The notes under the pieces are model-generated. The model was not told where the DNA came from, made no database searches, and saw only the letters and a list, made by a program, of their open reading frames with translations. DNA of 64,000 bases from Capillimicrobium parvum (GTDB lineage Bacteria > Actinomycetota > Thermoleophilia > Solirubrobacterales > Solirubrobacteraceae): assembly GCF_021172045.1 (NCBI RefSeq), contig NZ_CP087164.1, positions 5,642,001-5,706,000 of the forward strand. Direction: 5' to 3'. Below are positions 1-52,358 of this stretch, in pieces. The position numbers were made by a program, and so were the translations under genes. Every line of letters begins with the position of its first letter. Positions within the stretch are counted from its first letter, which is position 1.

Positions 1-1403
1 TCGTCGAGCCCCCCCGCGTCGAGCCCGAGCGCGGCGGCCGCCTCGGCGCCCGCCAGCGTCCCCGACAGCTCGGCGGTGTCCGCGCTCTCGTGGCCGGCGA
101 CCGCGCCCGCCGCGTGGACGCTGGGCGGCAGCGCGTCTGCGACGAACCGGCCGGTGGCCTGGTCGAAGCGGGCGCGCGCCCCCGACTGCAGCAGCAGCGA
201 GGTCGCCGGCGCGGCGCCTGCGGAGACCGCGAGCAGGTCGCACTCGATCCGCTCCTCGGTGCCGGCGACCGCCTGTCCGCGGTCGTCGACGCGGGCGAGC
301 GCGACGCCCTCGACGCCCTTGCGCCCGAGCGCCCGGACGGGCGTGAAGCCCTGGACGACCCGCAGGCCGAGCTCCTGGGCGCGCGCGGTCCGCGCGGTGG
401 GCTCGGTGCGCAGGTCGGCGATCGCCGCGACCGGGATCCCCGCCGCGTGCAGCGCCAGCGCGGCGTCGAGCCCGTCGTCGCCGACCGCGGCGACCACGGC
501 CCGCTCGCCGACCCGCAGGCCGTACAGCGCGGCCATGCGGCGCGCGCCGCCCGCGAGCATGACGCCGGGCAGGTCGTTGTCGGCGAAGACGAGCGGCTGC
601 TCGATCGTGCCCGTCGCCGCGACGAACCGCGCGGCGCGGATCTGGTGCAGCGTGCTGTCCTGCCAGACCGGCACGAGGCCGTCGAAGAAGCCGAGCGCGG
701 GCGCGCGGCTGAGGATCTCGACGCCCGCGGCCCGGGCCCGCTGCGCCAGCTCGCGGGCACGGTCGCCCCCGCCCTCGGCCAGCAGCCGGCCGCCCGGCTC
801 TGCGTCCTCGTCGCACAGGACGACGTCGGCGCCCGCCTCGGCGGCCCGCAGCGCCGCGGCCAGGCCGGCGATCCCGCCACCGACGACGAGCACGTCGCAG
901 TGGCGCCGGCGGTACTCGGTGCGCCACTCGCGCTCCTCCTGGCGCTTGGGCAGCTTGCCCAGGCCGGCGGCGTGGCGCAGGACCTTCTCGTAGACCGGCC
1001 ACATCCGCCGCGGGCGGATGAACGTCTTGTAGTAGAAGCCCGGCGGGGTGAACGGCCCGGCGAACTTGTCGGTCGCCGACATCACGTCGAAGTCGAGCGA
1101 CGGCCACGCGTTCTGGTGCTCGACCTTCATGCCCGCGACGATCGGCTCGCTGCAGGCGCGGATGCCGGGGCGCCCGTCGACGGTGACGAGCGAGTTCGCG
1201 CAGTGGCCGCAGCCGCAGATCTCGCCGCGCGGCCGGTGGTACTTGAAGGAGCGGGAGAAGACGCGCTGGCCGGAGGCGAACAGCGCCGAGGCGATCGTGT
1301 CGCCCGCGAAGCCGGTGACGGGCTTGCCGTCCCAGGTGAACGGGACGGGCCGCGAGCGGTCGATGCGCTCGCCGGGCTGGACGGGCAGGCGGGCCGTGCT
1401 CAT
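1..1403 (-). CDS. soxA: Sarcosine oxidase alpha subunit, N-terminal part (runs off the left edge)
   Basis: Large subunit of the heterotetrameric sarcosine oxidase family, which oxidatively demethylates sarcosine to glycine and passes the carbon to tetrahydrofolate. About 467 residues are present; the C-terminal half lies outside the window. The N-terminus has the family signature [11 protein letters not shown] (residues 51-61), followed by a ferredoxin-like segment with Cys63, Cys65, Cys68 and Cys84, and then a dinucleotide-binding motif, [17 protein letters not shown], near residue 161. The ATG overlaps the soxD stop (ATGA), so translation is probably coupled. The cysteine-bearing first domain resembles opine oxidase/HcnA-type relatives as I recall them, so an opine- or glycine-oxidising role cannot be excluded. 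Confidence 0.85.
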
Positions 1404-1780
1404 CGACCGACCACCCCCGATCCCGGTCCGCCGCCCGCAACGTCGGTGGTCGTGCCCACCGCCCCGCCGCCGGGCATGCCGGTCGCCGCGTCCACCGCGG
1501 CGAGCGTCCCCGCGTCGGCGGCGGGCGCCTCGTCAGGCAGCGCCGTCCACTTCACGTCGTTCGTGCGGGTGTCGCGCTCGGCCAGGAACCACGCCCGGCA
1601 GCCGGAGCGGTGCACCCACCACTCGCGCTGGACCCCCGCGACGTTGCGGCGGAAGTAGTTGTAGGCGTTGAGCTCGCGCCGGCTGGGGCGGGCCTTGGGC
1701 CGGGGCGACACCTCGCCTCCGTAGCCGAAGTCGGTGACCTCGCGGACACCGCAGTTTGGGCAGGTGAGAAGGAAGGACAT
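1400..1780 (-). CDS. soxD: Sarcosine oxidase delta subunit
   Basis: Small zinc-binding subunit of heterotetrameric sarcosine oxidase, 126 aa. The expected pattern is visible: CPNCG at residues 7-11, then WWVHRSGC with His57 and Cys61 as the likely remaining zinc ligands. It extends about 30 residues beyond the conserved core in an Ala/Gly-rich tail. An AGGAG Shine-Dalgarno sequence lies just upstream of the ATG (tgacaggagaccATG on the minus strand). It is the first gene of the visible soxD-soxA unit. soxB, normally upstream of soxD, is not here: the neighbouring gene is the divergent purU. Confidence 0.9.
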
Positions 1781-1880
1781 GGTCTCCTGTCAGAGCACGC
1801 GGTTGGGGGGCCACGTCGACGTCCGTCACGCTACGACGGGCGCGGAGAGGGGGCACCTCTCGATCGAGGGGGATCTCCGC

Positions 1881-1951
1881 CCTGCCCGGGCGGGTTTCGG
1901 GCAGGTGGCTGCCGACGACCTGCCCGGTCGGCGGGCAAAGACCCTCCCGCC
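1881..1951 (+). promoter_or_regulatory. Mutually exclusive hairpins ahead of purU
   Basis: CCTGCCCG occurs at 1881-1888 and again at 1919-1926; its exact complement CGGGCAGG at 1898-1905 lies between them and can pair with either copy but not both. A separate stem GGCGGG (1930-1935) / CCCGCC (1946-1951) with a 10-nt loop follows. This could be an attenuator. If purU is transcribed from the TACCGT box at 1981 the element would lie upstream of that mRNA, so it may instead belong to a longer transcript or to the divergent sox leader. I could not match it to glycine or THF riboswitch consensus sequences. Confidence 0.3.
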
Positions 1952-1980
1952 AGGGGGCGCACGGGCAACGCCGTGACCCC

Positions 1981-1986
1981 TACCGT
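1981..1986 (+). promoter_or_regulatory. -10 box TACCGT, leaderless promoter of purU
   Basis: TACCGT ends 7 nt before the GTG at 1994. This is the TANNNT-to-start spacing seen at many genes of this window and favours GTG 1994 over the in-frame GTG at 1985. Confidence 0.5.
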
Positions 1987-1993
1987 GCGGGGG

Positions 1994-2901
<908 letters not shown>

Positions 2902-2902
<1 letters not shown>

Positions 2903-3747
2903 TGGCGGCCGAGATCATCGACGGCAAGGCGGTCGCGCTGGCCGTCCGCGAGGCGGTCGCCGCCGACGTCGCGACGCTCGAGCGCCCGCCGGGCCTGGCG
3001 ACCCTGCTCGTCGGCGACGACCCGGCGTCCGCGATCTACGTCGCCAACAAGCGCAAGCAGTGCGAGGCCGCGGGCATGCGCGACCTGCACCAGCACCTGC
3101 CCGGCGACATCGCCCAGGACGAGCTCGCCGCGATCGTCGAGGCGCTGAACGCCGACCCCGACGTCACCGGCATCCTCCTGCAGCTGCCGCTGCCGGACCA
3201 TCTCGACGCGGCGCCGCTGATCGCGAGCATCCATCCCGACAAGGACGTCGACGGGCTGACCGAGGTCAGCGCGGGCCGCCTCGTCCTCGGCAAGCCCGGG
3301 CTGCGCCCGTGCACGCCGTCGGGCGTCATCGAGCTGCTCGACGCCTACGGCGTGCAGATCGAAGGCGCGGAGGCGGTCGTCGTCGGCCGCTCCGACCTCG
3401 TCGGCAAGCCGCAGGCCCAGCTCCTGCTCGCCCGCAACGCCACGGTCACCATGTGCCACTCGCGCACGCGCGACCTGCCGTCCGTGTGCCGCCGCGCCGA
3501 CATCCTCGTCGCCGCGGCGGGCGTCCCGCGCCTCATCGGACCGGACTCGGTCAAGCCCGGCGCGACGGTCATCGACGTCGGCATGCACCGCACCGACGAG
3601 GGACTGTGCGGCGACGTCGACTTCGACGCCGTGAGCGAGGTCGCCGGCAGGATCACCCCGGTGCCCGGCGGCGTCGGCCCGATGACGATCGCCATGCTGC
3701 TGAGAAACACCGTGACTGCCGCGCAGCTCGCAGCGGTCACCGCCTGA
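2902..3747 (+). CDS. folD: Bifunctional methylene-THF dehydrogenase / methenyl-THF cyclohydrolase
   Basis: Interconverts 5,10-methylene-THF and 10-formyl-THF. 281 aa, the usual FolD length. Visible family hallmarks are [13 protein letters not shown] with the catalytic Tyr and Lys, GILLQLPLP with the conserved Gln, [13 protein letters not shown], the nucleotide-binding segment [12 protein letters not shown], and the C-terminal [16 protein letters not shown]. The start is fixed by the one-base overlap with the purU stop. Together with soxDA and purU it completes a route from sarcosine through methylene-THF and formyl-THF to formate. Confidence 0.97.
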
Positions 3748-3771
3748 CCGCGCCCGGACGTGTGGGTGTCC

Positions 3772-3790
3772 ATGCCCGCTGAGCGGGCGT
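3772..3790. terminator. Hairpin between convergent folD and the PfkB gene
   Basis: GCCCGC (3774-3779), loop TGA, GCGGGC (3783-3788), extendable by one G-U and one A-T pair. It lies between the ends of two convergent genes and could serve both. There is no U-tract. Confidence 0.45.
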
Positions 3791-3867
3791 GAACAGCCCA
3801 AACGTCCTTCCGCCAACGCTGGACGACGCTCAGACGGCGGCGGCGCCGGCGTGTTGCGGAATTCCGC

Positions 3868-4764
3868 TCAGACGCTGATCGACAGGCGCGTCATGCCCTC
3901 CAGGGCCTGGACGCGCTCCTCGATCTCCTCCTCGGTCAGCCGGACGACGCGCTCGGTGCCGAACTCCTCGACGTTGTAGGACGCCAGCGCGGTGCCGTAG
4001 GCCATCGCCGTGCGGTACTCGCCCGGGTTCTTCGCCAGGTAGCCGACGAACCCGCCGGCGAACGTGTCGCCCGCGCCGGTCGGGTCGACGACGGTCTCCA
4101 GCGGATAGGCGGGCAGGCTGAAGTACTCGTCCTTCGTGATCAGCGCGGCGCCGTACTCGCCCTGCTTGGCCACGATCACGCTCGGGCCCATGTTGAGCAC
4201 CTCGCGGGCCGCCGACACGAGGTTCGGCTTCTCCGTGAGCTGGCGCAGCTCGGCGTCGTTGAGGATCACGCAGTCGACGCCGGAGATCGTCTTGACGAGG
4301 CTGGCGCGGGCGATCTCGATCCACAGGTTCATCGAGTCCATCGCGACGAAGCGCGCGCCCGTGCACTGGTCGCGCACCGCGCGCTGCACGTCGGGCTGGA
4401 TGTTCGCGAGGAACAGCACCTCGGCCTGGCGCGAGGCCTCCGACAGCTTCGGGTCGAACGTCTCGAACACGCCGAGCTGCGTGTCGAGCGTCTCGCGCGT
4501 GTTGAGGTCCCAGCCGTACTCGCCGTGCCAGAAGAACGTCTTGCCGCCGGCGACGCGCTCGACGTCCTCGGTCACGGTGCCGCGCAGCGCGAGCGTCTCC
4601 ATGTCCTCGAAGTCGTCGCCGACCGGGCCGACCGCGCGCACCTCGTCGAAGAACGACGCGGCCAGGGCGAAGTGGGTCGCCGCTCCGCCCAGCATCCGCT
4701 CACGCTCGCCGAACGGCGTCCTGACGCGGTCATAGGCAATCGATCCAACAACGGTCACGCTCAT
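3868..4764 (-). CDS. PfkB-family sugar/nucleoside kinase
   Basis: 298 aa kinase of the ribokinase/PfkB superfamily. The N-terminal substrate-binding glycines are in GSIAYDRV and MLGGAATHFALAASFF, and the C-terminal signature DPTGAGDTFAGGF (from residue 227) carries catalytic Asp233. The substrate cannot be read from sequence. It does not look like the mycobacterial adenosine kinase. It is the last gene of the minus-strand methyltransferase operon and its ATG overlaps the stop of the preceding gene (ATGA). That linkage makes adenosine, or another nucleoside released from S-adenosylhomocysteine, an attractive but unproven substrate. Confidence 0.85.
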   Translation of the reverse strand: MSVTVVGSIAYDRVRTPFGERERMLGGAATHFALAASFFDEVRAVGPVGDDFEDMETLALRGTVTEDVERVAGGKTFFWHGEYGWDLNTRETLDTQLGVFETFDPKLSEASRQAEVLFLANIQPDVQRAVRDQCTGARFVAMDSMNLWIEIARASLVKTISGVDCVILNDAELRQLTEKPNLVSAAREVLNMGPSVIVAKQGEYGAALITKDEYFSLPAYPLETVVDPTGAGDTFAGGFVGYLAKNPGEYRTAMAYGTALASYNVEEFGTERVVRLTEEEIEERVQALEGMTRLSISV

Positions 4765-6521
4765 ATGCGGGTCACTTTCACGAGATAGGCCACCATGACG
4801 TCGGAGGTCCCGATCCTCAGGTGGTAGGCGTCGGAGAGCCCCTCGACGCGTTCGATCTGCTCCTGGCTCTCCTGGAAATGCTCGGTGAACGGGAAGAAGG
4901 CGAAGTCGACGACCTCGCTGTGGAGCCCGTTCTGCTCCAGCAGGTCCTGCGTGCGCTCCTGCGACAGGATCGACAGCAGCATGAGGTACGCCTCGCCGTC
5001 GTCGGTCAGCGCCGCCGGCAGCGTGCCGATGAGGTGGTCGACCATGTTACGGCCCCAGTAGTCGATCGGCCGGTGCGACGACGCCTGCTGGAACGGGTCG
5101 ACAGGGGTCTGGTAGAGGCTCGCCACGATCGTGTCGTAGCGCTCCTCCGGAACCCATGGGAACAGGTCCACCGCCTGGGCGGTCACCCGCTCAGCGACGC
5201 CGTTGCGGAAGGCGTTGGTCAGCGTGTCGTCGACCGCGGCGGTGTCGACGTCGATGCCGTGGACGTGCTCCGCGCCGTTGAGCGCGAGCTGCACGGTCTG
5301 CAGGCCGGTGCCGCAGCCGACGTCGAGACAGCGGCGCCCCTTGCCGATGCCGTTCTCGAACAGGTACTGCCAGACGAGGAACGAGCCCTGGGTCGGCGTG
5401 AAGGTCGAGCCGTCGACCATGAGGTCGGGGAACGGCAGCGGGAACATCGGCCGGCCGCGCGGGTCGGTCCACGGCGAGTGGTGGCGGCGCGGGGTGCGGT
5501 TGAGGCCGTCGTCGCCGGCCTCGGGCTCCTCCCGCCGGCGGCGGCCGGGCTTCGTGCCCTCGAGGCGGACACGCGCCGCGGCGATGTGATCGGGGCTGAC
5601 GCCGCAGCAGCCGCCGATGATGTCCGCGCCCTCCGAGCGCCAGCCGAGCGCCATCTCGGCGTACTCCTCGCCGCCGATGCCCTCCTGGAACTGCCAGCCG
5701 GCGTTCGTGTAGTAGCCGAGGTTCGGGTACACGCCGAGCGGCATATCGGTGAAGTCGCGCAGGAAGGACAGCATCCCGGCCACGTGGTCCGGCGGGATGC
5801 AGTTGATCAGCAGCGCGCCGACGCCCATCTCCTCGAAGCGGCGGGCCGCGCGGCCGAACGCGTCGCCCTCGGGCCCGCCCCAGTGCTGGCCGTAGACGCC
5901 GCACAGCCCGTGGCGGCAGCGGCGGAACGACAGCCAGACCGGCAGGCCGGTCTCGAGCAGCCGCTCGACGGTCTGATACAGCGAGGAGGAGACGAGCGAC
6001 AGGGTCTCGACGAGGATCAGGTCCGGCGGCTCGTCGGCGAAGGCGCGGCTGAGTAGGCGGACCGTCTCCTGCCCCTCCTCACCGTCGACGTCGGCGTTCA
6101 GCGAGAACGCGACGGCGGTCCTGCCCTCGCGACCGCCCTCGGCCACGGCCTGGCGCGCGACGCGCACGCCGCGGCGGGCGATCTCCAGCCAGTGCACGGG
6201 CTCGGAGCTGTCCTCCCACGGACGCACCCCGCCCTCGCCCACCGCGGACGCCAGGCCCCACGTGTCGGTCGTGATGACGTCGCAGCCCGCGTCGACGTAG
6301 CGCCGGTGCACCGCACGCACCTCCGCCGGCGAGTAGGCGAGCGCGCGCACGCCCCACAGCTGCTCGCTGTGCGGGCCCTCGGTCAGCAGGTCCTGCGGCA
6401 GCTCGGTGGCGATGCCGCCGTCGAGGATCACGCAACGCTGCTCGGACAGCGCCTCACGGACGGCGTCGTACGCCGACGCGGTCGCGAAGCTCACGTCCGA
6501 CTCTCCCATGAAGCCGGCCAA
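4761..6521 (-). CDS. Homocysteine S-methyltransferase fused to a class I SAM-dependent methyltransferase (copy 1)
   Basis: 586 aa fusion. Residues ~20-320 form a homocysteine-binding/BHMT-like barrel: DGGIATELP at 34, then zinc ligands Cys241 (in LLINCIPPDHV) and Cys305-Cys306 (in IIGGCCGVSP). After an Arg-rich linker (~325-365) a Rossmann methyltransferase follows with motif I LDVGCGTG (residues 399-406), the acidic end of strand 2 in HGIDVD, and VASLYQTPVDPFQ where N6-type enzymes would have NPPY. The first half should make methionine from homocysteine; the second uses SAM on an unknown acceptor. TTG at 6521 is chosen because AGAAGG lies 7 nt upstream; ATG 6509 is the alternative. Confidence 0.85.
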   Translation of the reverse strand: MAGFMGESDVSFATASAYDAVREALSEQRCVILDGGIATELPQDLLTEGPHSEQLWGVRALAYSPAEVRAVHRRYVDAGCDVITTDTWGLASAVGEGGVRPWEDSSEPVHWLEIARRGVRVARQAVAEGGREGRTAVAFSLNADVDGEEGQETVRLLSRAFADEPPDLILVETLSLVSSSLYQTVERLLETGLPVWLSFRRCRHGLCGVYGQHWGGPEGDAFGRAARRFEEMGVGALLINCIPPDHVAGMLSFLRDFTDMPLGVYPNLGYYTNAGWQFQEGIGGEEYAEMALGWRSEGADIIGGCCGVSPDHIAAARVRLEGTKPGRRRREEPEAGDDGLNRTPRRHHSPWTDPRGRPMFPLPFPDLMVDGSTFTPTQGSFLVWQYLFENGIGKGRRCLDVGCGTGLQTVQLALNGAEHVHGIDVDTAAVDDTLTNAFRNGVAERVTAQAVDLFPWVPEERYDTIVASLYQTPVDPFQQASSHRPIDYWGRNMVDHLIGTLPAALTDDGEAYLMLLSILSQERTQDLLEQNGLHSEVVDFAFFPFTEHFQESQEQIERVEGLSDAYHLRIGTSDVMVAYLVKVTRI

Positions 6522-6548
6522 CCGCGCACCTTCTCTCCATACCCTCGG

Positions 6549-6634
6549 GGTCCCAACGGGACCATGATTGCGCCCACCGGGAGGGGGCTACACCACCCGA
6601 GGGGGTGGTCTTGCCTGGCCGTTGGGCAGGCAAG
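6549..6634 (-). promoter_or_regulatory. Structured leader with three hairpins before the copy-1 methyltransferase gene
   Basis: In the 142-bp gap between the LuxR gene and the downstream methyltransferase the minus strand holds three perfect stems: CTTGCCTG/CAGGCAAG (6634-6627 with 6617-6610), directly abutting ACCACCC/GGGTGGT (6609-6603 with 6598-6592, 4-nt loop), then GGTCCC/GGGACC (6563-6558 with 6554-6549, 3-nt loop). The ribosome site follows. The pattern suits a cis-regulatory leader. I could not match it to SAM, SAH or cobalamin riboswitch consensus. Confidence 0.4.
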
Positions 6635-6663
6635 GGGGGTGGAGCGGGCGGCGGCGAGCACGG

Positions 6664-7617
6664 TCATGCGCCGGGCGGCCCGTCCCCGCGGCGCAGCGTC
6701 AGGCGCAGGTACCGCGAGGTCGCCTCGGCGCGGTTGGCGGCGTGCAGCTTGCGCAGGATGTTCTTCACGTGGAACTTCACCGTGCCCTCGGACACGACGA
6801 GGCTGCGCGCGATCCCGCCGTTCGTCTCGCCCTTCACCATGAGCTCGAGCACGTCGAGCTCGCGGCGGGTGAGCAGGTCGCGCAGCGCGGACTCGTTCGG
6901 GGCGGCGCCGCGCGAGGGCTCGTCGTCGCCGCCCGGCTCGCGGTCGGTGGCCAGGGTCACGGCCCGATCGGACAGCTCGCTCGTGCGCGCGTCGGCCCAG
7001 CTGGCGACCTGGCGCATCTCCTGGCGCTGGTTGCGCAGGCGCCGGCGCAGGACCGCCCGTTCGAAGACGAGGGCGAAGCCACCGGCCAGCGCGCCGAGCC
7101 CGTCGCGCTCGAGCTCGCCGAGCGGCGGCCCGCCGCGGGCGGGATCGCGATCGCCGTGCAGGAAGCCGATCACCCTCGCCTCGAGAACGATCGGCGCCGT
7201 CAGGTAGACGTCCCAGCCGAGGATGTCCGCGTAGGCCCGGCGCCCGCGCGGGTCGCCGTCGGCGCGCGCCACCAGCTGCGGCCGCCGGCGGCGCAGCACC
7301 TCGCCCTCGACGAGCGGGTAGTCGATCGGCACCGGCGCCTCGCGCAGCCGCGCGAGGGTGGCCTCGGCTCCGTCCGGATCGCGCGGGGCGTGGAGCGCCT
7401 CGGCGTGCAGCGCGGCGTCCTCGACGCGGCTGAGCAGCACGCGGTCGAGGTCCAGGGCGGCGGCGGTCTCGACCGGCCCGCGCTCGAGGATCTCGCTCAC
7501 CGGGCCGAGCTCGGCCAGGCGCTCGAGCGCCGTCCAGACGCCCTCGAGCGCGGCCACCCGCCGGCGGCACGCGTCGAGCGCATCGGCGGCCGCGACGGCC
7601 TCCTTGCCGAGCGTCAT
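6664..7617 (-). CDS. GAF-like sensor protein with LuxR-type DNA-binding domain
   Basis: 317 aa regulator. Residues ~20-190 look like a GAF domain (segments SEILERGPVETAAALDLDRV and YLTAPIVLEARVIGFLHGDR). A putative coiled segment rich in Arg, Glu and Gln follows around 190-215, then a LuxR/GerE helix-turn-helix at ~249-310 with LTRRELDVLELMVKGETNGG and VSEGTVKFHVKNILRKL. No receiver domain is present, so it probably senses a ligand directly. Its ATG overlaps the stop of the upstream methyltransferase copy (ATGA), so it is made together with the enzymes it likely controls. Confidence 0.8.
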   Translation of the reverse strand: MTLGKEAVAAADALDACRRRVAALEGVWTALERLAELGPVSEILERGPVETAAALDLDRVLLSRVEDAALHAEALHAPRDPDGAEATLARLREAPVPIDYPLVEGEVLRRRRPQLVARADGDPRGRRAYADILGWDVYLTAPIVLEARVIGFLHGDRDPARGGPPLGELERDGLGALAGGFALVFERAVLRRRLRNQRQEMRQVASWADARTSELSDRAVTLATDREPGGDDEPSRGAAPNESALRDLLTRRELDVLELMVKGETNGGIARSLVVSEGTVKFHVKNILRKLHAANRAEATSRYLRLTLRRGDGPPGA

Positions 7618-9377
7618 CGGCGCTTGGCCCACGGCGCGGTCCCGTTGCCCGGCTGGTCGCCCGAGCGGCGGACCTCGAGCAGGTAGGCGACCACGACGTC
7701 GTGCTCGGACAGGCGCAGGTGGTAAGCGTCGGAGAGCTCCTCGACGCGCTCGATCTGCGCGACGCTCGGCTCGAAGGCGGACGAGAAGTGAAACAGGTCG
7801 TAGTCGACGACCGTGGCCGTGAAGCCCGCGGCGCTCAGGAGCTCCTCGGTGCGGTGCTGGGACAGGATCGAGAGCTGCACCACGTAGGCGACGCCCTCGG
7901 GGGCCAGCGCCTGCGGCAGCTTGGCGATGACCTGGTCGAACGCGTTGCGCCCCCAGTAGTCGAGCGGCCGGTGCGTCGAGACGCGCTGGAACGGGTCGAC
8001 CGGGACCTGGTAGAGGCTGGCCACGATGACCTCGTAGCGCTCCTCGGGCACCCACGGGTACAGGTCGACCCGCGCGATCGACATGCGGTCGGACACGCCG
8101 TTGCGGAATGCGTTCTCGTGCGTGTTGGCCACGGCGCGCTCGTCGACGTCGATCGCGTGCACGTGCGCCGCGCCGTTGAGCGCGAGCTGGACGCCGAGGA
8201 TGCCGGTCCCGGCGCCGACGTCCAGGCAGCGCTGGTGGGCGCCGATGCCCTCCGCGTAGAGGTAGCGCCAGGCCAGGAAGCTCGCCCCGCCCGGCGCGAA
8301 CACGCCGGGGGCGCAGACGAGGTCGGGGAACTCGAGGGGGTACAGGAGGCGCTCGCGGCGGTCGCGCCACTGCGACGGCTCCGGCGTGACCGGGACCGCC
8401 ACGTCGGCCGTGGCGCCGGCGGCACGCCGCCGGCCCGGCCGCGTCCCGTCGAGGCGCTCGCGCGCCGCGGCGATGTGGCCGGGCGTCACGCCGCAGCAGC
8501 CGCCGATGATGTCCGCGCCCTCCTCGCGCCAGCGCAGCGCCATCCGCGCGTACTCGTCGCCGCCGATGCCCTCCTCGAACTGCCATCCGGCGCTCGTCAG
8601 GTATCCGAGGTTCGGATACACGCCGAGCGGCATGTCGGTGAAGTCGCGCAGGAACGAGATCATGCCGTCGACGTGGTCGGGCGGGATGCAGTTGGCCAGC
8701 AGCGCGCCGATGCCCATCTCCTCGAAGCGGCGCGCGGCGCGGCCGAACGCGTCGCCCTCCGGACCGCCCCAGTGCTCGCCGTAGACCCCGCAGAGCCCGT
8801 GCCGGCAGCGGCGGAACGACAGCCAGACCGGCAGGCCGGTGTCGAGCAGGCGCTCGATCGTGTCGTAGAGCGACGGGCGTACCAGCGACAGCGTCTCGAC
8901 GAGCAGCATGTCCGGCGGCTCGTCGGCGAACACGCGGGAGAGCAGGCGGATCGTCTCCTGGCCCTCGTTGGCATCGACGTCGCCGTTGAGCGAGAAGGCC
9001 ACCGCGGCGGCGCCGTCGCCGACCGCCTCGCGGGCCAGCGTGACGCCGCGGCGGGCCACGTCCATCCAGTGCACCTCGCGCGACGTCTCCCACAGGCGCG
9101 GCCCGTTGGACATCAGCGCGCTCGGCAGGCCCCAGGTGTCGGTGGAGATGACGTCGCAGCCCGCCTGGACATAGCGGCGATGGACGTCGCGGACCGCGTC
9201 GGGGTCGTCGACGACCGCCCGCACGCCCCACAGCCGGTCGTCGCTCTCGCGCATGCCGGGCAGCTCCGTGCCCACGCCGCCGTCGAGCACGACGCAGCGC
9301 TCCGCCCGCAGCAGCTCGCGCACGCGCTCGTACGCGGGCTGGCGCCCGACCTCGGCCTGCGATGCACTGCTCCCCAT
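7614..9377 (-). CDS. Homocysteine S-methyltransferase fused to a class I SAM-dependent methyltransferase (copy 2)
   Basis: 587 aa, same architecture as the copy at 4761-6521 and near-identical over the barrel core (for example WLSFRRCRHGLCGVYG in both). Zinc ligands are in LLANCIPPDHV and IIGGCCGVTP; the SAM motif is LDVGAGTGILGVQLAL. It is the promoter-proximal gene of the operon copy 2 - GAF-LuxR - copy 1 - PfkB. ATG 9377 is chosen because a TAGACT box ends 7 nt upstream; the frame is open another 50 codons but that stretch is not family-like. The tandem pair implies duplication with retention, perhaps for two methyl acceptors or donors. Confidence 0.85.
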   Translation of the reverse strand: MGSSASQAEVGRQPAYERVRELLRAERCVVLDGGVGTELPGMRESDDRLWGVRAVVDDPDAVRDVHRRYVQAGCDVISTDTWGLPSALMSNGPRLWETSREVHWMDVARRGVTLAREAVGDGAAAVAFSLNGDVDANEGQETIRLLSRVFADEPPDMLLVETLSLVRPSLYDTIERLLDTGLPVWLSFRRCRHGLCGVYGEHWGGPEGDAFGRAARRFEEMGIGALLANCIPPDHVDGMISFLRDFTDMPLGVYPNLGYLTSAGWQFEEGIGGDEYARMALRWREEGADIIGGCCGVTPGHIAAARERLDGTRPGRRRAAGATADVAVPVTPEPSQWRDRRERLLYPLEFPDLVCAPGVFAPGGASFLAWRYLYAEGIGAHQRCLDVGAGTGILGVQLALNGAAHVHAIDVDERAVANTHENAFRNGVSDRMSIARVDLYPWVPEERYEVIVASLYQVPVDPFQRVSTHRPLDYWGRNAFDQVIAKLPQALAPEGVAYVVQLSILSQHRTEELLSAAGFTATVVDYDLFHFSSAFEPSVAQIERVEELSDAYHLRLSEHDVVVAYLLEVRRSGDQPGNGTAPWAKRR

Positions 9378-9384
9378 GGACCGC

Positions 9385-9390
9385 AGTCTA
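9385..9390 (-). promoter_or_regulatory. -10 box TAGACT, leaderless promoter of the methyltransferase operon
   Basis: On the minus strand TAGACT is followed by 7 nt and the ATG at 9377. It is divergent from the glycoside hydrolase gene. Confidence 0.5.
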
Positions 9391-9501
9391 GGTCCCGGTA
9401 GAGTGGCCGCGCTGTGGCGACAGGGGGCCCGGCCGGACGCCGTTTCGGGCTCACCGCGACGACAGGGGCGCATCGTCCGCCCCAGGAGATTCGATTCCCC
9501 C

Positions 9502-10884
9502 ATGCTTGCACCCCGCGCGCGCTTCATCCGGTTGTGCCTGTGCGCGCTCGTCGCCGTGGCCGCGACGGGCGCCCTGGCCGCCCCCGCCCCGGCCGCCGTA
9601 CCGCCCGACTTCTACTCCGTCAGCGTCAACACCATCTTCAACCCGGACGGGACGCTGAAGCCCAACGGCGACGCGCAGCTCGCGGCGCTGCAGGCGACCG
9701 GCGTGACCGCCGCCCGCATGGACGCGTCGTACGCCGCCGTGCAGCCGCTGGGCACCGGGCCCGGGTTCCCGCCCTCGTTCGTCGTGCTCGACCGCATCGC
9801 GACGGCGCTCGCCTCGCACGGCCTGCGCTGGGAGCCGACGCTCGGCTATGCACCGCTCTGGGACCGGCCGGATCCGAGCACCGACAAGACGCCGCCGTCG
9901 AACCCGGCCGCGTTCGCCGCCTACGGCGCGGCGGTCGTCGCGCGCTACGGGCCCAGCGGGTCGTTCTGGGCGGCCAACCCGGGGCTGCCCGTGCTGCCGA
10001 TGGAGCTCATCGAGGTCTGGAACGAGCCGAACCTGCCCGCGTACTGGCGCCCCGCCCCGGACGCGGCGCGCTACGCCCGGCTGTACCTCGCGACGCGGAC
10101 CGCGATCCACGCCGTCGCGCCCGGCGTCAAGGTCGTCACCGGCGGGCTCAGCCCGTACGAGAAGCCGGTGAACTTCCTGGCGCGGATGAAGCGCGACCAG
10201 CCGCAGCTCATGGGCAACCTCGACGGCGTGGGCTTCCACCCGTACGCGGCGGGCGCGCCCGGGGTGATCGCCCAGGTCGCGGCGCTGCGCACCGGGCTCA
10301 ACCGGCTCGGCGGGCGGGCGGTGTCGATCGCCGTGACCGAGGTGGGCTGGCCGCTGCCCAACCGCAGCCCGACCCGGAACTTCGCGCTGCCCGACAGGAC
10401 GCGCGGCGGGGCGACGGGGCTCATGGCCGACGCGATGGGCTCCGGCAACTGCAACGTGTCCGGCATGACGCTGTTCAACTGGACGTCGGCGATGAGCAAC
10501 CCGGTCGAGCAGGAGGACTGGTTCGGCATCGAGCGCCCGGACCTCACGCCGACCCGGTCGGTGGGCGCCTACTCGGGCGCGGTGCGCCGCAACCAGACGC
10601 CGGGCTCGGTGGCGACCTGCGGCGGGCGCGGGTCGGCGCGGCTCGCGCTCGGCCTGCGGCTCAAGGCCAAGCAGGCCAAGAAGCGTCGGTGCGCGACGGC
10701 CACGGTCACCTACCGCGGCCTGCCGCTGAACCACGTGCGCGTGGCGATGCAGGCCAACCGCCGCACCATCCACCCGCTCACCGGCCACCGCGGGATCGCG
10801 CGTCTGTGCTTCCGCGGCAAGCCGAGGATCTCGGCCCGGGCCGCCGTGGGCGACTGGGCGCGCTCGGCGAAGCGCACGGTGTAG
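9502..10884 (+). CDS. Secreted clan-A glycoside hydrolase
   Basis: 460 aa. A signal peptide covers about residues 1-33 (two arginines, a hydrophobic stretch, then an Ala-rich cleavage region before VPPDFYSV). The TIM-barrel catalytic residues of GH clan A are visible: acid/base Glu175 in VWNEPN and nucleophile Glu280 in AVTEVGW. A C-terminal ~85-residue basic beta-rich domain follows, including RGLPLNHVRVAMQAN, Ig-like in appearance. The GH family is unclear (GH39 or GH5-like). An AGGAG lies 13 nt before the ATG. It probably acts on extracellular or cell-surface polysaccharide. Confidence 0.8.
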   Translation: MLAPRARFIRLCLCALVAVAATGALAAPAPAAVPPDFYSVSVNTIFNPDGTLKPNGDAQLAALQATGVTAARMDASYAAVQPLGTGPGFPPSFVVLDRIATALASHGLRWEPTLGYAPLWDRPDPSTDKTPPSNPAAFAAYGAAVVARYGPSGSFWAANPGLPVLPMELIEVWNEPNLPAYWRPAPDAARYARLYLATRTAIHAVAPGVKVVTGGLSPYEKPVNFLARMKRDQPQLMGNLDGVGFHPYAAGAPGVIAQVAALRTGLNRLGGRAVSIAVTEVGWPLPNRSPTRNFALPDRTRGGATGLMADAMGSGNCNVSGMTLFNWTSAMSNPVEQEDWFGIERPDLTPTRSVGAYSGAVRRNQTPGSVATCGGRGSARLALGLRLKAKQAKKRRCATATVTYRGLPLNHVRVAMQANRRTIHPLTGHRGIARLCFRGKPRISARAAVGDWARSAKRTV

Positions 10885-10893
10885 GCGGCGACG

Positions 10894-10937
10894 CCGCGGC
10901 GGCCCGGTGATCCGGGCCGCCGCGGGGCCGCGGCCCC
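10894..10937. terminator. Strong hairpins between the convergent hydrolase and sigma factor genes
   Basis: A 14-bp perfect stem, CCGCGGCGGCCCGG (10894-10907) against its complement (10912-10925) with loop TGAT, partly overlaps a second stem GGGGCC/GGCCCC (10924-10937). A third, weaker stem CCGTCC/GGACGG follows near 10945-10967. This is a likely bidirectional terminator. Confidence 0.65.
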
Positions 10938-10990
10938 GCGCTCCCCGTCCGCGGGAAGGACGGAGAGCGCACGCTCAGCGCGGCAGGGAG

Positions 10991-11827
10991 CTACGCCGCG
11001 TTGAGCGCCTGGGCCTCGGGCAGCTGGCGGAGCTTGCGCAGCGCCTGCTCCTCGAGCCTGCGCACCCGGTCGGCGGAGAGCTTGAGCTCCCGCGCGACCT
11101 GGTGCATCGTCCGCTCAGGCTGGCCATCGAGCCCGAACCGCATCTGGATCACGCGCCGCTCGCCGCCCGGGAGGTTCTCCAGGGCGGAGTCGATCGCGTG
11201 ACGGTCCATGACGGCGGCGGTCTCGTCGAAGGGGGTCGGGCTGGCGCGGTCCTCGAGGAAGTCGCCCAACTCGGCCTCGTCGTCGCCGACGGGCGCGTGC
11301 AGGGAGACGGTGGCCGGCAGCTCGCCACGCACGATCTCGATCTCGTCGAGCGTCAGGCCGAGCTCCTCGGCCAGCTCCTCGTTGCTCGGATCGCGGGCGT
11401 GCTTGAGCACGAATCGCCGCTCGGCGCGCTGCACGCGGTGCAGTCGCTCCGCGATGTGCACGGGCAGCCGGATCGTCCGGCCCTTGTCGGCCAGCGCGCG
11501 CGCCAGGGACTGCCGGATCCACCAGACCGCGTAGGTGCTGAACTTGAAGCCCTTGCGGTGGTCGAACTTCTCGACCGCGCGGATGAGGCCGACATTGCCT
11601 TCCTGGATGAGGTCGAACAGCGTCAGCCCGCGGTCCTGGTAGCGCTTGGCCAGCGAGACGACGAGGCGAAGGTTCGCCGTCATCATCCGCTCCTTGGCCG
11701 CGAGGTCACCGCGCTCGATGCGCTTGGCGAGCTCGATCTCCTCGTCCGCGGTCAGCAGCTTGTGGCGCCCGATCTCCTCCAGATACAGCGTCAATGCCTC
11801 GTCGTGGTCGTACATGGACCAGAGCAT
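10991..11827 (-). CDS. Sigma-70 family RNA polymerase sigma factor (RpoD-like, group 2)
   Basis: 278 aa. Region 1.2 is in [14 protein letters not shown], region 2 in [17 protein letters not shown] and [18 protein letters not shown], the -10-recognition helix in [17 protein letters not shown], region 3 follows, and region 4 helix-turn-helix is in [19 protein letters not shown]. It lacks the long acidic region 1.1 and the non-conserved region of a housekeeping SigA, so it is probably an alternative principal-like (HrdB/SigB-type) factor. ATG 11815 is a possible later start. No anti-sigma gene is adjacent. Confidence 0.93.
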
Positions 11828-11864
11828 TCACGCCGACCCTGAGGGCGTCGTGAAGCGAAGGTAA

Positions 11865-11952
11865 GGCCCCGCTCAGTGCAAGCGCGCGCCCGCGCCCAGG
11901 GTCAGTGAGGCCCCGTTCGGTGCAAGCGCGCGCCCGCGCCCAGCGTCAGTGG
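11865..11952. repeat. 44-bp tandem duplication at the 3' end of the L,D-transpeptidase gene
   Basis: Two 44-bp units (11865-11908 and 11909-11952) differ at a handful of positions. The second contains the stop codon and last codons of the transpeptidase gene, and the first is its non-coding copy downstream. It is one of four such duplications in the window. Confidence 0.85.
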
Positions 11953-13091
11953 ATCAGGACGCGCGCGCCGAGCGGCACCCGCGGATACAGGTCGATGACG
12001 TCGGAGACGTGCATGCGGATGCAGCCGTGCGAGGCGCGCGTGCCGATCGACCAGTCCTCGGCGGTGCCGTGGATGCCGACCCCGTTGACGATGCCGAGCC
12101 ACCGGGCCTTCAGCGGGTTGTCCGGCGCACCCCCGGGGATGACCTGGCCGGCGAGCGACCCCGCCCAGTCCGACAGCGGCACGTGCCAGGCGGGGTCGAC
12201 CTGCCTGCTCGTGATCCGGTACAGGCCCGCGGGCGTGTCGAGCCCGGCCATGCCGACCGCGATCCCGTAGCTCTTGACGAGGCGCAGGTTCTTGAAGAGG
12301 CGCAGGCGGAACCCCCCGCGGTCGACGGTGACGATCGTCGAGTTGGCGCGCCGCAGCGAGCGGACGGTGACGGGCGGGTCGAGGCCGACGAGCGGCTGGC
12401 GCAGCGCGTCGCGCCTCGCGAGCGGGTCGATGAGGACCTTGCCGACGCGGCCGGCGAGGCGCGACGCGTCGATCGTGAAGCCGCGCTTGGCCGTGTGGAC
12501 CCTCATCCGCGTCACGCCGATGCGCAACGTCGCGCTGCGCGGGCGGCGGGTGACCGAGCCGGAGACCTCGTTCGCCCAGGCGCGGACCGCGGGCCGCGAG
12601 TACGTGGCGGCGACCGGGACCTGCAGGCCGGCGCCGGCGCCGCCGGCGGCCCGGCGCGTCGGGGCGGTGGTGGTCGGCGTGGTCGTCGGCGTGGTCGTGG
12701 CCGGCGTGGGCGTGGCCGGCGTCGTGGGCGCCACCGGGACGACGACGGGCGGCGGCGGGGGCGCGGTACCGGCGTCGCGGGACGCGTAGTAGGCGCGGCG
12801 GGCGGTCCGCAGCGCGTCGAGGCGGACCTTGGCGCGCGTGCCGTCGACCTGGAACCGGCGATGGCCCACGCGCACGGTCACCGGCGCGAGCAGACGCGGC
12901 GTGACCTCCTGGTCGAGCTTCCCCGCCGCTGCGGTGATCGTGAGGTTCGACAGGTCGACGCCGCCGGCGGTCGTGCCGGGGCCGATGATCGAGGTGTCGT
13001 CCGCGGTCTGCGCGCCCGCCGGGGCGGCGGCCAGAGCCAAGGTGAGGGTCAGCGGGGCGATTGCGGCCCAGAACGTCCGTGCGCCAGTCAT
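11946..13091 (-). CDS. Secreted L,D-transpeptidase (YkuD domain)
   Basis: 381 aa. The signal peptide is about residues 1-27 (ends ...AAPAGAQT). A putative peptidoglycan-binding region follows, then a Pro/Thr/Ala spacer around residues 112-148, a second basic domain, and the C-terminal YkuD domain with IHGTAEDWSIG and the catalytic SHGCIRM motif (Cys357). It should form 3-3 cross-links or attach proteins in the cell wall. A TACATT box 9 nt before the ATG suggests a leaderless transcript. Confidence 0.92.
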   Translation of the reverse strand: MTGARTFWAAIAPLTLTLALAAAPAGAQTADDTSIIGPGTTAGGVDLSNLTITAAAGKLDQEVTPRLLAPVTVRVGHRRFQVDGTRAKVRLDALRTARRAYYASRDAGTAPPPPPVVVPVAPTTPATPTPATTTPTTTPTTTAPTRRAAGGAGAGLQVPVAATYSRPAVRAWANEVSGSVTRRPRSATLRIGVTRMRVHTAKRGFTIDASRLAGRVGKVLIDPLARRDALRQPLVGLDPPVTVRSLRRANSTIVTVDRGGFRLRLFKNLRLVKSYGIAVGMAGLDTPAGLYRITSRQVDPAWHVPLSDWAGSLAGQVIPGGAPDNPLKARWLGIVNGVGIHGTAEDWSIGTRASHGCIRMHVSDVIDLYPRVPLGARVLIH

Positions 13092-13100
13092 CCGGCGGCC

Positions 13101-13106
13101 AATGTA
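13101..13106 (-). promoter_or_regulatory. -10 box TACATT of the L,D-transpeptidase gene
   Basis: It lies 9 nt before the ATG at 13091 on the minus strand and fits the leaderless pattern. Confidence 0.45.
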
Positions 13107-13140
13107 GTCAGCCGCGGCCCCGCATCCTGCAAGTCCGCCG

Positions 13141-13245
13141 TCAGGCGCAGGAGCGGCCGGTCACGCGACGACGGACGGCGTCCCACACGTCGGCCGTGGC
13201 GTCGGCGACGGGCCGGGGATCGGTCGCCCACATCGGTCGGCTCAC
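13141..13245 (-). CDS. Possible small protein coupled to the ROK kinase gene
   Basis: 34 codons from a GTG that overlaps the kinase stop (GTGA). The product starts VSRPMWATDPRPVAD and ends with RRRVTGRSCA. It has no recognisable domain. The case for it is the translational overlap, which is the rule in this genome, and use of the gap before the next gene. It could equally be chance read-through. Confidence 0.3.
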   Translation of the reverse strand: MSRPMWATDPRPVADATADVWDAVRRRVTGRSCA

Positions 13246-14213
13246 GGGCCGACGAGCATGGCGGCGCCGAGCGCGCCGCCGTAGTCGCCGAGCGCCGCGA
13301 CGGCCACCGCGGGCGGGCGGTCGTCGTTGAAGAGGTGCGGCCGCATCGCCTCGGCCAGGCGCGCGGCCGCGGCGTCGCCGAAACGGACGCCCAGCCCGCC
13401 GCCGAGGACGACCGCCTCGACGTCGAGCAGGTTGATCGCCGAGGCGACGCCGGCGCCCAGCGCCAGGTAGGCGCGCTCGAAGAGATGCTCGGCGAGCTGG
13501 TCGCCGTGCTTGAGCGCCCGCTCCCAGACGCCGCTGGTGAGCCGGTCGCGCCCCCGCTCCTTCATGATCTTGAAGAGGTCGGTGTGCTCGCCCTCGTCGT
13601 GGCGCCTGCGCGCTTCGACCTCCATCGCCTTGCGCCCGGCGTAGGCCTCCATGCACCCGTGCCGCCCGCACGGGCAGAGGGCGCCGCCGCGCTTGACGAC
13701 CATGTGGCCGATCTCGCCGGCCGCGGCGCGGCCCTCCCACTCCTTGCCGTCGAGGATGAGGCCCCCGCCCACGCCGGTGCCCCAGAAGACGCCGAGCAGC
13801 GACCCGTACGGCTTGCCGGCGCCGAGCTCGAACTCGGCCCGCGTCGCGACCGACACGTCGTTGCCGATCGCCACGGACGTTCCGAGCGCGGCGCCGAGCA
13901 TCTCGGCGACCGGCACCGCGCCGGTCCAGTTCGGCAGGTTGCCGGCCTGCGCGATCGTCCCCTGCCTGGCGTCGATGTCGCCCGGCGAGCCGAGCCCCAC
14001 GCCCCCGAGCTCGTCGGCGTTCAGGCCGGCCCCGACGCACGCCTGGCGCATCACGTCGGCGAGCGCGTTGATGACGTCCTGCGGACCGCCGGTGGTCGGC
14101 GTCGGCTGGCGCGCCTCGCCGAGGACCTTGTGGTCGGCGTCGGCGACGATCGCCTGGATCTTGGTCCCGCCGAGGTCGATGCCGCCGCGCGGCCTGGTCT
14201 CAGGCTCGACCAT
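13242..14213 (-). CDS. ROK-family sugar kinase (glucokinase-like)
   Basis: 323 aa. The phosphate-binding motif GIDLGGTKIQ is near the N-terminus, the catalytic Asp region is in AIGNDVSVATRAE, and the ROK zinc motif GEIGHMVV...CPCGRHGCMEAY is complete. It probably phosphorylates glucose or another hexose with ATP, although ROK specificity cannot be read with certainty. Its ATG lies inside the 3' end of the upstream SDR gene (14-bp overlap), so the pair form one transcript. Confidence 0.9.
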   Translation of the reverse strand: MVEPETRPRGGIDLGGTKIQAIVADADHKVLGEARQPTPTTGGPQDVINALADVMRQACVGAGLNADELGGVGLGSPGDIDARQGTIAQAGNLPNWTGAVPVAEMLGAALGTSVAIGNDVSVATRAEFELGAGKPYGSLLGVFWGTGVGGGLILDGKEWEGRAAAGEIGHMVVKRGGALCPCGRHGCMEAYAGRKAMEVEARRRHDEGEHTDLFKIMKERGRDRLTSGVWERALKHGDQLAEHLFERAYLALGAGVASAINLLDVEAVVLGGGLGVRFGDAAAARLAEAMRPHLFNDDRPPAVAVAALGDYGGALGAAMLVGP

Positions 14214-50990: not shown

Positions 50991-52358
50991 TCACAGCCGC
51001 GGCGAGTACTCGGCGAACTCCCAGTCGGTCACCCAGGCGCGGTAGCGGTCGAGCTCCGCGGCCTTGATGACCTCGAACGTCTCGATCACCCCTGCGCCGA
51101 GCGCGTCGTGGATGACGCGGTCCTGGCGCAGTGCTTCCAGCGCGTCGCCGAAGGACGTCGGCAGCGGACGGCCCTGCACCTCCTCCGGGAGGTCGTAGAT
51201 CATGCCCTCGATCGGCGCCGGGGGCTCGAGCTCGCGGCGGATGCCGTCCAGCCCGGCGGCGAGCGCCGCCGTGTAGGCCAGGTACGGGTTCGCCGTGCCG
51301 TCGCCGAGGCGCAGCTCCATCCGCGTCGCGTCGCCGCGCTCCTTCGGGACCCGGACGAGCACCATGCGGTGGTCGTGGCCCCAGCTCGCGCGCGTCGGCA
51401 CGAGCGCCTCGGCGGTGATGCGCCGGTACGCGTTCACCGTGGGGTTGAAGAACACCATGATCGCCGGCGAGTGCTCGATCAGCCCGGCGATGAAGTGGCG
51501 CGCGACGGGGGCCAGCCCGTCGTCCGCGGCCGGATCGCAGCAGACGTTCTCACCGTCGTCGTCGCACAGCGACACGTGCAGGTGGAAGCCCGAGCCCTCG
51601 TCGTCGTTGAACGGCTTGCCCATGAACGTGGCGAGCAGGCCCTCACGCGCGGCGATCTCCTTGACCATCGACTTGAAGCGGAACGCGCGGTCGGCGGAGT
51701 CGAGCGCCGGCCCGTGGCGCAGGTTGATCTCGTACTGCGAGCGGCCGTACTCGTGGGCGGCGGCGAGCGCGCCGAGACCGAGGTCGACCGTGGCCTGGAG
51801 CATGCGCGCCAGGACGCCGCGCGGGTCCGCGATGCCGCCGACGGTGTAGACGGGGGTGTCCTGGTGGGCGTAGTGCCTGTAGCCCCGCGGCGCCTGCGGA
51901 TCGGGCTCGCAGAGGTAGAACTCGAGCTCCGGGCCCAGGATCGGCGCCAGGTCGAGGCGCGCGAACTCGGCGAGCACCGCCTTCAGCCGCCCGCGGGAGT
52001 CCAGCGGGTGCGGATCGCCGGTGTGCGGGTCGGTGAGGTCGGCGATGCACCCCGCCACCTCCGGCTCCCACGGCAGTCGCACCAGGGTCGAGAGGTCCGG
52101 CTTGGCCTGGAGGTCGGGAAACCCCCGCTCGAAGCCGGCGATCACGTTGTGGCGCAGGTCCACGGTCATGACCGCCTCGACGAAGCCGATCCCCTCCTCG
52201 GCCACGTGACCGAACGCGTCGATCGGGATGTCCTTGCCCCGGTTGATCCCGTGCAGGTCGGCGTACTGGAGCCGCACCGTGCGGATGCCCGCCGCCTTCA
52301 GGTCCTCGGGGCTGAGCGCCGCGCCGACGCCGGCCTCCGGAAGCGTGTCGTGAGTCAC
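50991..52358 (-). CDS. Glutamine-synthetase-like gamma-glutamyl ligase (copy 1)
   Basis: 455 aa member of the GS type I fold outside true glutamine synthetases. Glutamate/metal residues in ILGPELEFYLCEP, HEYGRSQYEINLRHG, EGSGFHLHVSL; substrate loops FNPTVNAYRR and RMELRLGDGTANPYLAY. PuuA, GlnA4 and IpuC-type enzymes with this look attach glutamate to polyamines or alkylamines. Closest in style to the second copy at 58941. GTG 52358 has AGGAGAG just upstream. Confidence 0.85.
   Translation of the reverse strand: MTHDTLPEAGVGAALSPEDLKAAGIRTVRLQYADLHGINRGKDIPIDAFGHVAEEGIGFVEAVMTVDLRHNVIAGFERGFPDLQAKPDLSTLVRLPWEPEVAGCIADLTDPHTGDPHPLDSRGRLKAVLAEFARLDLAPILGPELEFYLCEPDPQAPRGYRHYAHQDTPVYTVGGIADPRGVLARMLQATVDLGLGALAAAHEYGRSQYEINLRHGPALDSADRAFRFKSMVKEIAAREGLLATFMGKPFNDDEGSGFHLHVSLCDDDGENVCCDPAADDGLAPVARHFIAGLIEHSPAIMVFFNPTVNAYRRITAEALVPTRASWGHDHRMVLVRVPKERGDATRMELRLGDGTANPYLAYTAALAAGLDGIRRELEPPAPIEGMIYDLPEEVQGRPLPTSFGDALEALRQDRVIHDALGAGVIETFEVIKAAELDRYRAWVTDWEFAEYSPRL

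What the first reader, a model, noticed from the sequence alone, without database searches (positions are those of the whole stretch)
4761..9377. Tandem homocysteine methyltransferase - SAM methyltransferase fusions with a GAF-LuxR switch and a PfkB kinase
Two ~586-residue proteins each join a zinc-dependent homocysteine S-methyltransferase (Cys241, Cys305, Cys306 in copy 1) to a Rossmann SAM methyltransferase (LDVGCGTG). Consuming SAM and regenerating methionine in one chain would be a self-contained methyl cycle. The operon also makes a ligand-sensing GAF-LuxR protein and a PfkB kinase that might use the nucleoside released from S-adenosylhomocysteine. I know of no described operon of this design.
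Basis: partly seen in the sequence, partly recalled or inferred. Interest (0 to 1): 0.75.

Follow-up and report, generated by a model that had tools for sequence, protein, structure and literature searches.

The report
Fused methyl-in, methyl-out enzyme operon
Some soil actinobacteria carry one protein that joins an enzyme making methionine from a methyl donor to an enzyme spending methyl groups from S-adenosylmethionine, often encoded beside the rest of the methyl cycle and a demethylating oxidase, which suggests an undescribed route for burning or balancing methyl groups.

Summary
Two 586/587-aa proteins (66% identical) each join a homocysteine S-methyltransferase domain (HMT, PF02574; three zinc cysteines invariant in 42 homologues) to a class I SAM-methyltransferase domain (MT). 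They are overlapped or followed by a GAF-LuxR regulator and a PfkB kinase. A third copy lies elsewhere in the genome. The full-length fusion occurs in 40 of 399 sampled genomes of the class and in scattered others of the phylum. No model in Pfam or NCBIfam matches the full length, and no paper was found that describes it.

Across 45 loci the fusion lies beside SAM synthetase (16 loci; 0.17 expected by chance), the same PfkB (12), SAH hydrolase (5), FolD/PurU, and a sarcosine-oxidase-type demethylase (5, this window included). It is therefore probably not a self-contained cycle but the entry (donor to methionine) and exit (SAM to acceptor) of a methyl cycle whose remaining enzymes are encoded next door. 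The MT domain is HemK2-like but has lost NPPY; its [YP]Q motif resembles methionine S-methyltransferase MmtN.

Leading mechanism: the MT domain N-methylates an amino acid that the SOX-type enzyme then oxidises (about 0.4). Main rival: an S-methylmethionine cycle (about 0.22). Substrates are untested.

The parts
4761..6521 (-). Fusion copy 1 (F1): HMT domain ~19-325, linker ~331-345, HemK2-like SAM-methyltransferase domain ~350-586
   Evidence: Pfam; AF2 model pLDDT 85.5, pTM 0.59; MT domain alone pLDDT 92.3; conservation
7614..9377 (-). Fusion copy 2 (F2), 587 aa, 66% identical to F1
6664..7617 (-). GAF-LuxR regulator; ATGA overlap with the F2 stop; homologue beside the fusion in 17 of 45 loci
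3868..4764 (-). PfkB-family kinase, probable adenosine/nucleoside kinase; ATGA overlap with the F1 stop; homologue in 12 of 45 loci
6522..6663 (-). Gap before F1; folds better than shuffles (z -3.06), no Rfam match, function unknown
2902..3747 (+). FolD, methylene-THF dehydrogenase/cyclohydrolase (convergent)
1973..2902 (+). PurU-like formyl-THF deformylase (ACT + Formyl_trans_N)
1400..1780 (-). SoxD-like delta subunit of a SOX-type demethylase
   Evidence: PF04267 1.6e-24
1..1403 (-). N-terminal part of the SoxA-like alpha subunit (952 aa); continues left of the window, followed there by SoxG-like, SoxB-like and MetK (L112 7405-13404)

Best explanation
The fusion is a bifunctional methyl gate on the methionine/SAM cycle. 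The N-terminal zinc TIM barrel moves a methyl group from a small onium donor (glycine betaine-, DMSP- or S-methylmethionine-like) to homocysteine, making methionine. MetK converts methionine to SAM. The C-terminal domain transfers the SAM methyl to a small acceptor, most likely an amino acid nitrogen (glycine giving sarcosine, or glutamate giving N-methylglutamate). SAH hydrolase returns homocysteine and the PfkB kinase removes the adenosine. The SOX-type tetramer then oxidises the N-methyl group to methylene-THF, and FolD and PurU carry it on to formate. The GAF-LuxR protein switches the genes with an unknown ligand. Shown here: domains, conserved residues, gene linkage and distribution. Inferred: every substrate, the direction of flux, and the regulator's role.
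For: HMT: the homocysteine-site Asp34/Glu172 and Zn Cys241/305/306 are conserved, and Trp56 is invariant. Trp56 aligns with the Trp of MmuM (SLW) and is absent from the corrinoid-dependent MetH chains in the same alignments, fitting a direct onium donor. Structure matches are MetH, BHMT and MmuM barrels, Z 25-30. MT: SAM-site motifs are conserved, with HemK2/N6AMT1 at Z 22. NPPY, present in the nearest stand-alone relatives for which a motif was retrieved, is lost, so a HemK-type protein-glutamine substrate is unlikely. Linkage in 45 non-redundant loci: MetK in 16 (9 of them within 50 bp of the fusion; 0.17 expected), PfkB in 12, SahH in 5, PurU in 8, FolD in 5, SOX-type in 5, and MetK plus the complete SOX-type set beside this window. 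A dedicated MetK, SahH and kinase suits a high-flux small-molecule methyltransferase better than macromolecule modification. SoxD occurs in 28 of 40 fusion genomes against 69 of 358 others (odds ratio 9.8; not corrected for phylogeny). Genomes G052, G375, G251 and G286 have the SOX-type genes beside the fusion but no close MgsC relative and no type III glutamine synthetase above cut-off, so its N-methyl substrate needs another source. Other loci add betaine ABC transporter parts, a second HMT, MetE-like proteins or formate dehydrogenase.
Against: The acceptor is a guess from neighbours. 12 of 40 fusion genomes lack a detected SoxD, two of them nearly complete (G222, G133). 19 of 45 loci show none of the methyl-cycle, C1 or regulator neighbours, although several of these are short contigs. 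The MT motif IV resembles methionine S-methyltransferase MmtN rather than a known glycine N-methyltransferase. The window genome G000 has methylamine-pathway genes (GmaS, MgsC) at 0.50 Mb and no other divergent SoxD, so its window SOX-type set may serve methylamine instead. The window SoxA and SoxB score below the curated sarcosine-oxidase cut-offs.
Confidence: 0.4

Rival explanations
1. S-methylmethionine cycle in one chain: the MT domain is a methionine S-methyltransferase (SAM + Met to SMM) and the HMT domain uses SMM + homocysteine to give 2 Met. With MetK, SahH and the kinase this completes the plant-type SMM cycle, which buffers SAM and methionine.
For: MmtN (Met S-methyltransferase) is a Foldseek hit at E 9.3e-12 and Z 17.3-17.4 over 205-209 residues, more residues than N6AMT1. 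Motif IV VAxL[YP]QxPxDP resembles MmtN VIVGCLPQVGEPD, with Gln invariant. By sequence the best single solved match for the HMT half is MmuM. HMT genes sit next to group II mmtN in archaea and CPR bacteria, where an SMM cycle was predicted (PMC9135737). F-MetK-PfkB-SahH clusters contain exactly this enzyme set.
Against: 17% structural identity to MmtN, against about 30% between MmtN groups. Cys121 of MmtN is not conserved, and Glu127 maps only with a one-residue insertion. It leaves the SOX-type, FolD, PurU and betaine-transporter neighbours unexplained, and gives only a futile cycle.
Confidence: 0.22
2. Betaine-type demethylation with SAM overflow: the HMT half is the betaine or DMSP entry enzyme, and the SOX-type set demethylates the remaining N-methyl compound. 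The MT half disposes of excess SAM onto some other small acceptor, unconnected with the SOX-type enzyme.
For: OpuAC and betaine-type ABC permeases in 4 loci, and choline-dehydrogenase-like and BHMT-like neighbours. Bmt enzymes are known to use betaine and DMSP directly (PMC12366255).
Against: No dimethylglycine-demethylating enzyme was identified in the clusters; transporters occur in only 4 of 45 loci, none of which carries the MetK or SOX-type neighbours.
Confidence: 0.2
3. The MT domain modifies a macromolecule (protein or RNA) as HemK2, PrmA or RsmC do, and the HMT half merely regenerates methionine.
For: Best structural matches are HemK2/KMT9, PrmA and RsmC; best profile hits are PRK14968 and PrmA.
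Against: NPPY is lost in all 42 homologues. Duplicated copies, patchy distribution and catabolic C1 neighbours do not fit a housekeeping modification.
Confidence: 0.1
4. Secondary-metabolite or other unknown function, with the neighbours only supplying SAM.
For: 19 of 45 loci lack the methyl-cycle, C1 or regulator neighbours.
Against: No biosynthetic gene cluster was recognised around the fusion in the loci read.
Confidence: 0.08

Closest known systems
MmuM / BHMT / Bmt homocysteine S-methyltransferases (PF02574)
   Same: Zinc TIM barrel, NC...GGCCG cysteines, homocysteine-site Asp/Glu, onium-site Trp (as in MmuM)
   Different: Fused to a SAM-methyltransferase; carries an invariant loop W-SFRRCRHG-CGVYG-HWGGPEGD; scores far below the MmuM and BHMT curated cut-offs
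HemK2/N6AMT1-KMT9 and PRK14968 methyltransferases
   Same: Closest fold (Z 22), GRN...D motif, SAM motif I
   Different: NPPY replaced by [SATCNG][LV]xQ; no Trm112 partner seen
MmtN / plant MMT methionine S-methyltransferases and the SMM cycle (PMC9135737)
   Same: Fold; LPQ-type motif IV; HMT genes adjacent to mmtN in group II organisms
   Different: There two separate genes; low identity; SOX-type, FolD and PurU are not part of that cycle
SAR11 betaine/DMSP/methylamine C1 oxidation (PMC3160333)
   Same: BHMT, SOX-type tetramer, FolD, THF-linked oxidation, OpuABC
   Different: No HMT-MT fusion described there, and no MetK-SahH-kinase block
Liver BHMT - MAT - GNMT - SAHH - adenosine kinase - sarcosine dehydrogenase route (own knowledge)
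   Same: Same logical order as the proposed pathway
   Different: Separate enzymes; GNMT is a different methyltransferase family
N-methylglutamate pathway (GmaS, MgsABC, MgdABCD)
   Same: The window SOX-type tetramer groups with sets from genomes holding GmaS/MgsC
   Different: Several fusion genomes have the tetramer but lack close GmaS/MgsC relatives

Membership tests
Homocysteine S-methyltransferase superfamily (PF02574) | Profile match over the whole barrel | tested here: met
   4.8e-39 and 5e-38, residues 31-317 and 29-308
Homocysteine S-methyltransferase superfamily (PF02574) | Three zinc-ligand cysteines | tested here: met
   C241, C305, C306 in 42 of 42
Homocysteine S-methyltransferase superfamily (PF02574) | Methyl transfer to homocysteine | not testable with these tools
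   needs assay
MmuM (NF007020) / BHMT (NF005718) proper | Curated score cut-off (215 / 338 bits) | tested here: not met
   102-106 and 49-53 bits
Cobalamin-dependent methionine synthase MetH | Folate, cobalamin and activation domains | tested here: not met
   only the barrel matched; C-terminal half is a class I methyltransferase
HemK/PrmC/MTQ2 N5-glutamine methyltransferases | NPPY motif | tested here: not met
   absent in 42 of 42; present in stand-alone relatives L119-L121
MmtN/MMT methionine S-methyltransferases | GxGxG SAM motif | tested here: met
   GCGTG and variants (definition from PMC9135737)
MmtN/MMT methionine S-methyltransferases | SAM/Met-binding residues C121, E127, R132, E250 (R. 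indicus MmtN) | tested here: inconclusive
   C121 replaced by S/A/T/C/N/G; Gln124 equivalent invariant; E127 maps to D475 only with a one-residue insertion; R132 and E250 could not be placed without coordinates
MmtN/MMT methionine S-methyltransferases | About 30% identity between groups | tested here: not met
   17-18% in structural alignment
Heterotetrameric sarcosine oxidase (TIGR01372/TIGR01373) | Curated cut-offs 1164 / 529 bits | tested here: not met
   window SoxA 786 and SoxB 465 bits; a canonical SoxA elsewhere in the genome gives 1235
Adenosine kinase (PfkB) | PfkB fold family | tested here: met
   7.6e-26
Adenosine kinase (PfkB) | Phosphorylates adenosine | not testable with these tools
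   specificity inferred from linkage with SahH and MetK; nearest solved chain 3kd6, 1.4e-78, recalled from memory as a nucleoside kinase with AMP

The most novel reading that the evidence does not exclude
A previously undescribed route of methyl-group oxidation in soil actinobacteria. Methyl groups from onium compounds are funnelled through methionine and SAM onto an amino acid and burnt by a SOX-type enzyme, with a single fused protein acting as both entry and exit of the SAM cycle.
Probability: 0.3. Interest if true: 0.8.

Novelty: new variant of a known kind. Interest (0 to 1): 0.57.

Why it matters
If confirmed, this is a gene-encoded link between the methionine/SAM cycle and C1 oxidation, handled by one bifunctional enzyme. 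It would explain how abundant, mostly uncultured Thermoleophilia and related soil actinobacteria may use methylated compounds, and it gives a testable marker gene. It would also provide a compact catalyst that both makes methionine from a cheap methyl donor and spends SAM, which is useful for SAM-recycling biocatalysis.

Tried and rejected
Rfam scan of 1-14000 for SAM/SAH riboswitches: no family match, only chance hits. The 143-nt stretch before F1 folds unusually well (z -3.06), but only a 37-nt stretch recurs in one congener, so no regulator is claimed. Papers on an HMT-MT fusion, or on HMT + SOX + SahH + betaine together: none describing this system. A search with a plant MMT fragment written from memory found none in 149 genomes of the phylum; this is uninformative without a positive control. 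The full-length model has pTM 0.59, so no claim of channelling or domain arrangement is made. The 52-bp DNA match at 5281389 in the genome was taken as a chance match and not followed. My first reading of the SOX genes as plain sarcosine oxidase was dropped after the cut-off test and the tree. Domain fusions in other phyla could not be searched: the 'of' option needs a G handle, and the single genome-contig scan returned only actinobacterial fusions. The structure search did not list a glycine N-methyltransferase, but that absence is not evidence.

Full report
CHECK. Both fusion genes, the GAF-LuxR gene and the PfkB gene are at or next to the stated coordinates. Pfam supports PF02574 in the N-terminal halves and class I methyltransferase models in the C-terminal halves of both copies. 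The GAF assignment is borderline. Overlapping ATGA junctions join copy 2 to LuxR and copy 1 to PfkB; LuxR and copy 1 are 142 nt apart.

DISTRIBUTION. The window lies in a 5.95-Mb single-contig genome with a third full-length copy at 3.53 Mb (60% identical to copy 1), plus a separate stand-alone HMT and a MetH-sized open frame, so the fusion is unlikely to be the sole methionine synthase. Full-length or contig-cut fusions occur in 40 of 399 genomes of the class and 9 of 396 drawn from the phylum, at 55-74% identity and without internal stops. Named public records that carry it are MAGs of Thermoleophilia, Solirubrobacterales, Solirubrobacteraceae and Actinomycetota. The fusion is therefore a real, uncommon, conserved architecture. 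No NCBIfam or Pfam model covers its full length.

HMT HALF. In 42 non-identical homologues Cys241/305/306, Asp34, Glu172 and Trp56 are invariant or nearly so. In the profile alignments Trp56 falls on the Trp of E. coli MmuM, while the Thermotoga and Thermus MetH chains have a gap or Phe there. I read this as a site for an onium donor rather than methylcobalamin; the role of this Trp in BHMT is from my own knowledge. The fold matches MetH, BHMT and MmuM barrels (Z 25-30). A loop, W-SFRRCRHG-CGVYG-HWGGPEGD (about 196-223), is almost invariant yet poorly modelled (pLDDT ~57 over 201-220) and is not seen in the MmuM or MetH alignments shown.

MT HALF. AF2 gives pLDDT 92 for the domain alone. The closest folds are HemK2/N6AMT1 (Z 22); PrmA, RsmC and MmtN follow at 17-19. 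The NPPY motif of the nearest stand-alone actinobacterial relatives is replaced in all 42 fusions by [SATCNG][LV]xQ, with Gln471 invariant. Some members read LPQ, close to MmtN GCLPQ. MmtN Cys121, Glu127, Arg132 and Glu250 bind SAM or Met; only a partial correspondence could be shown.

CONTEXT. A simple codon-bias gene caller with BLAST clustering was used on the fetched loci and reduced to 45 non-redundant loci. Counts: GAF-LuxR in 17, MetK in 16 (9 of them within 50 bp of the fusion; about 0.17 expected by chance for 0.61 Mb at one metK per 3.5 Mb), PfkB in 12, SoxG-like small GCV_T in 9, PurU in 8, SoxA in 5, FolD in 5, SahH in 5, betaine ABC parts in 4 and a second HMT in 4. Left of this window run SoxD, SoxA, SoxG-like, SoxB and MetK, and in the window FolD and PurU. 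SahH, SoxA and SoxB family identities are; for window SoxA and SoxB only below the curated cut-offs. The third copy sits with a GAF-LuxR gene, two MTHFR-family genes and metK.

SOX-TYPE TETRAMER. SoxD (PF04267) is found in 28 of 40 fusion genomes and 69 of 358 others of the class (Fisher odds ratio 9.8, p 1e-10). Relatedness was not corrected for, so the p-value is only indicative. The window tetramer is not a canonical sarcosine oxidase by NCBIfam cut-offs. It groups with sets in genomes that have GmaS/MgsC (G032) and with sets in genomes that lack close relatives of them (G052, G375, G286, G251). G000 itself has GmaS and MgsC at 0.50 Mb, so there the tetramer may serve methylamine. In the genomes lacking them its N-methyl substrate must come from elsewhere; the neighbouring MT domain is a candidate source. 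This is an inference.

MECHANISM. The gene set fits a pathway donor-CH3 to Met (HMT), Met to SAM (MetK), SAM to N-methyl amino acid (MT), SAH to Hcy + adenosine (SahH), adenosine to AMP (PfkB), and N-methyl to methylene-THF to formate (SOX-type, FolD, PurU). It explains every neighbour. The SMM-cycle alternative explains MetK, SahH and the kinase and fits the MmtN-like motif, but not SOX, FolD or PurU. No substrate could be tested. Nineteen loci have none of these neighbours and twelve fusion genomes no detected SoxD, so the full pathway is not obligatory.

VERDICT. It is a new domain architecture and gene neighbourhood built from known enzyme families: a new variant of a known kind.

Noticed in passing
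L093:1552-3651(+), also L089 and L095 and a short form in L075: Another protein beside the fusion: a ~700-aa chain with a SAM-methyltransferase domain at ~413-542 behind an N-terminal half that looks MetE/UROD-like by eye (no Pfam match there). Possibly a second, independent fusion on the same theme.
   Followed up: partly
L085:7387-8355(-): Stand-alone HMT (322 aa, 43% identical to the HMT half) directly downstream of a full fusion; it keeps SFRR but lacks the RHG-CGVYG-HW loop.
   Followed up: partly
window 6522-6664(-): 143-nt stretch before F1 folds with z -3.06 into a multi-branched structure; no Rfam family.
   Followed up: partly
window residues 196-223 of F1 (about 5853-5936): Almost invariant loop with two extra cysteines (C202, C207) and H213, low model confidence; could be a second metal site or a donor-binding lid.
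   Followed up: no
L009:2367-5066: HypD/HypE-type hydrogenase-maturation genes close to the third fusion copy (named by eye).
   Followed up: no
L091, L094 (and L100 in part): Fusion next to a second HMT (BHMT-like), NAD formate dehydrogenase and an OpuAC/permease betaine-type ABC transporter.
   Followed up: partly
G000:C1:503697-506329: MgsC-like and type III glutamine synthetase (GmaS-like) genes of the N-methylglutamate pathway, while the only divergent SoxD of the genome lies in this window.
   Followed up: partly
window 51003-52301 and 58953-60245 (-): Two glutamine-synthetase-family genes (below the type III cut-off) in the same window.
   Followed up: no
window 9502-10884(+): Divergently transcribed predicted secreted protein (460 aa) sharing the upstream region of F2.
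   Followed up: no
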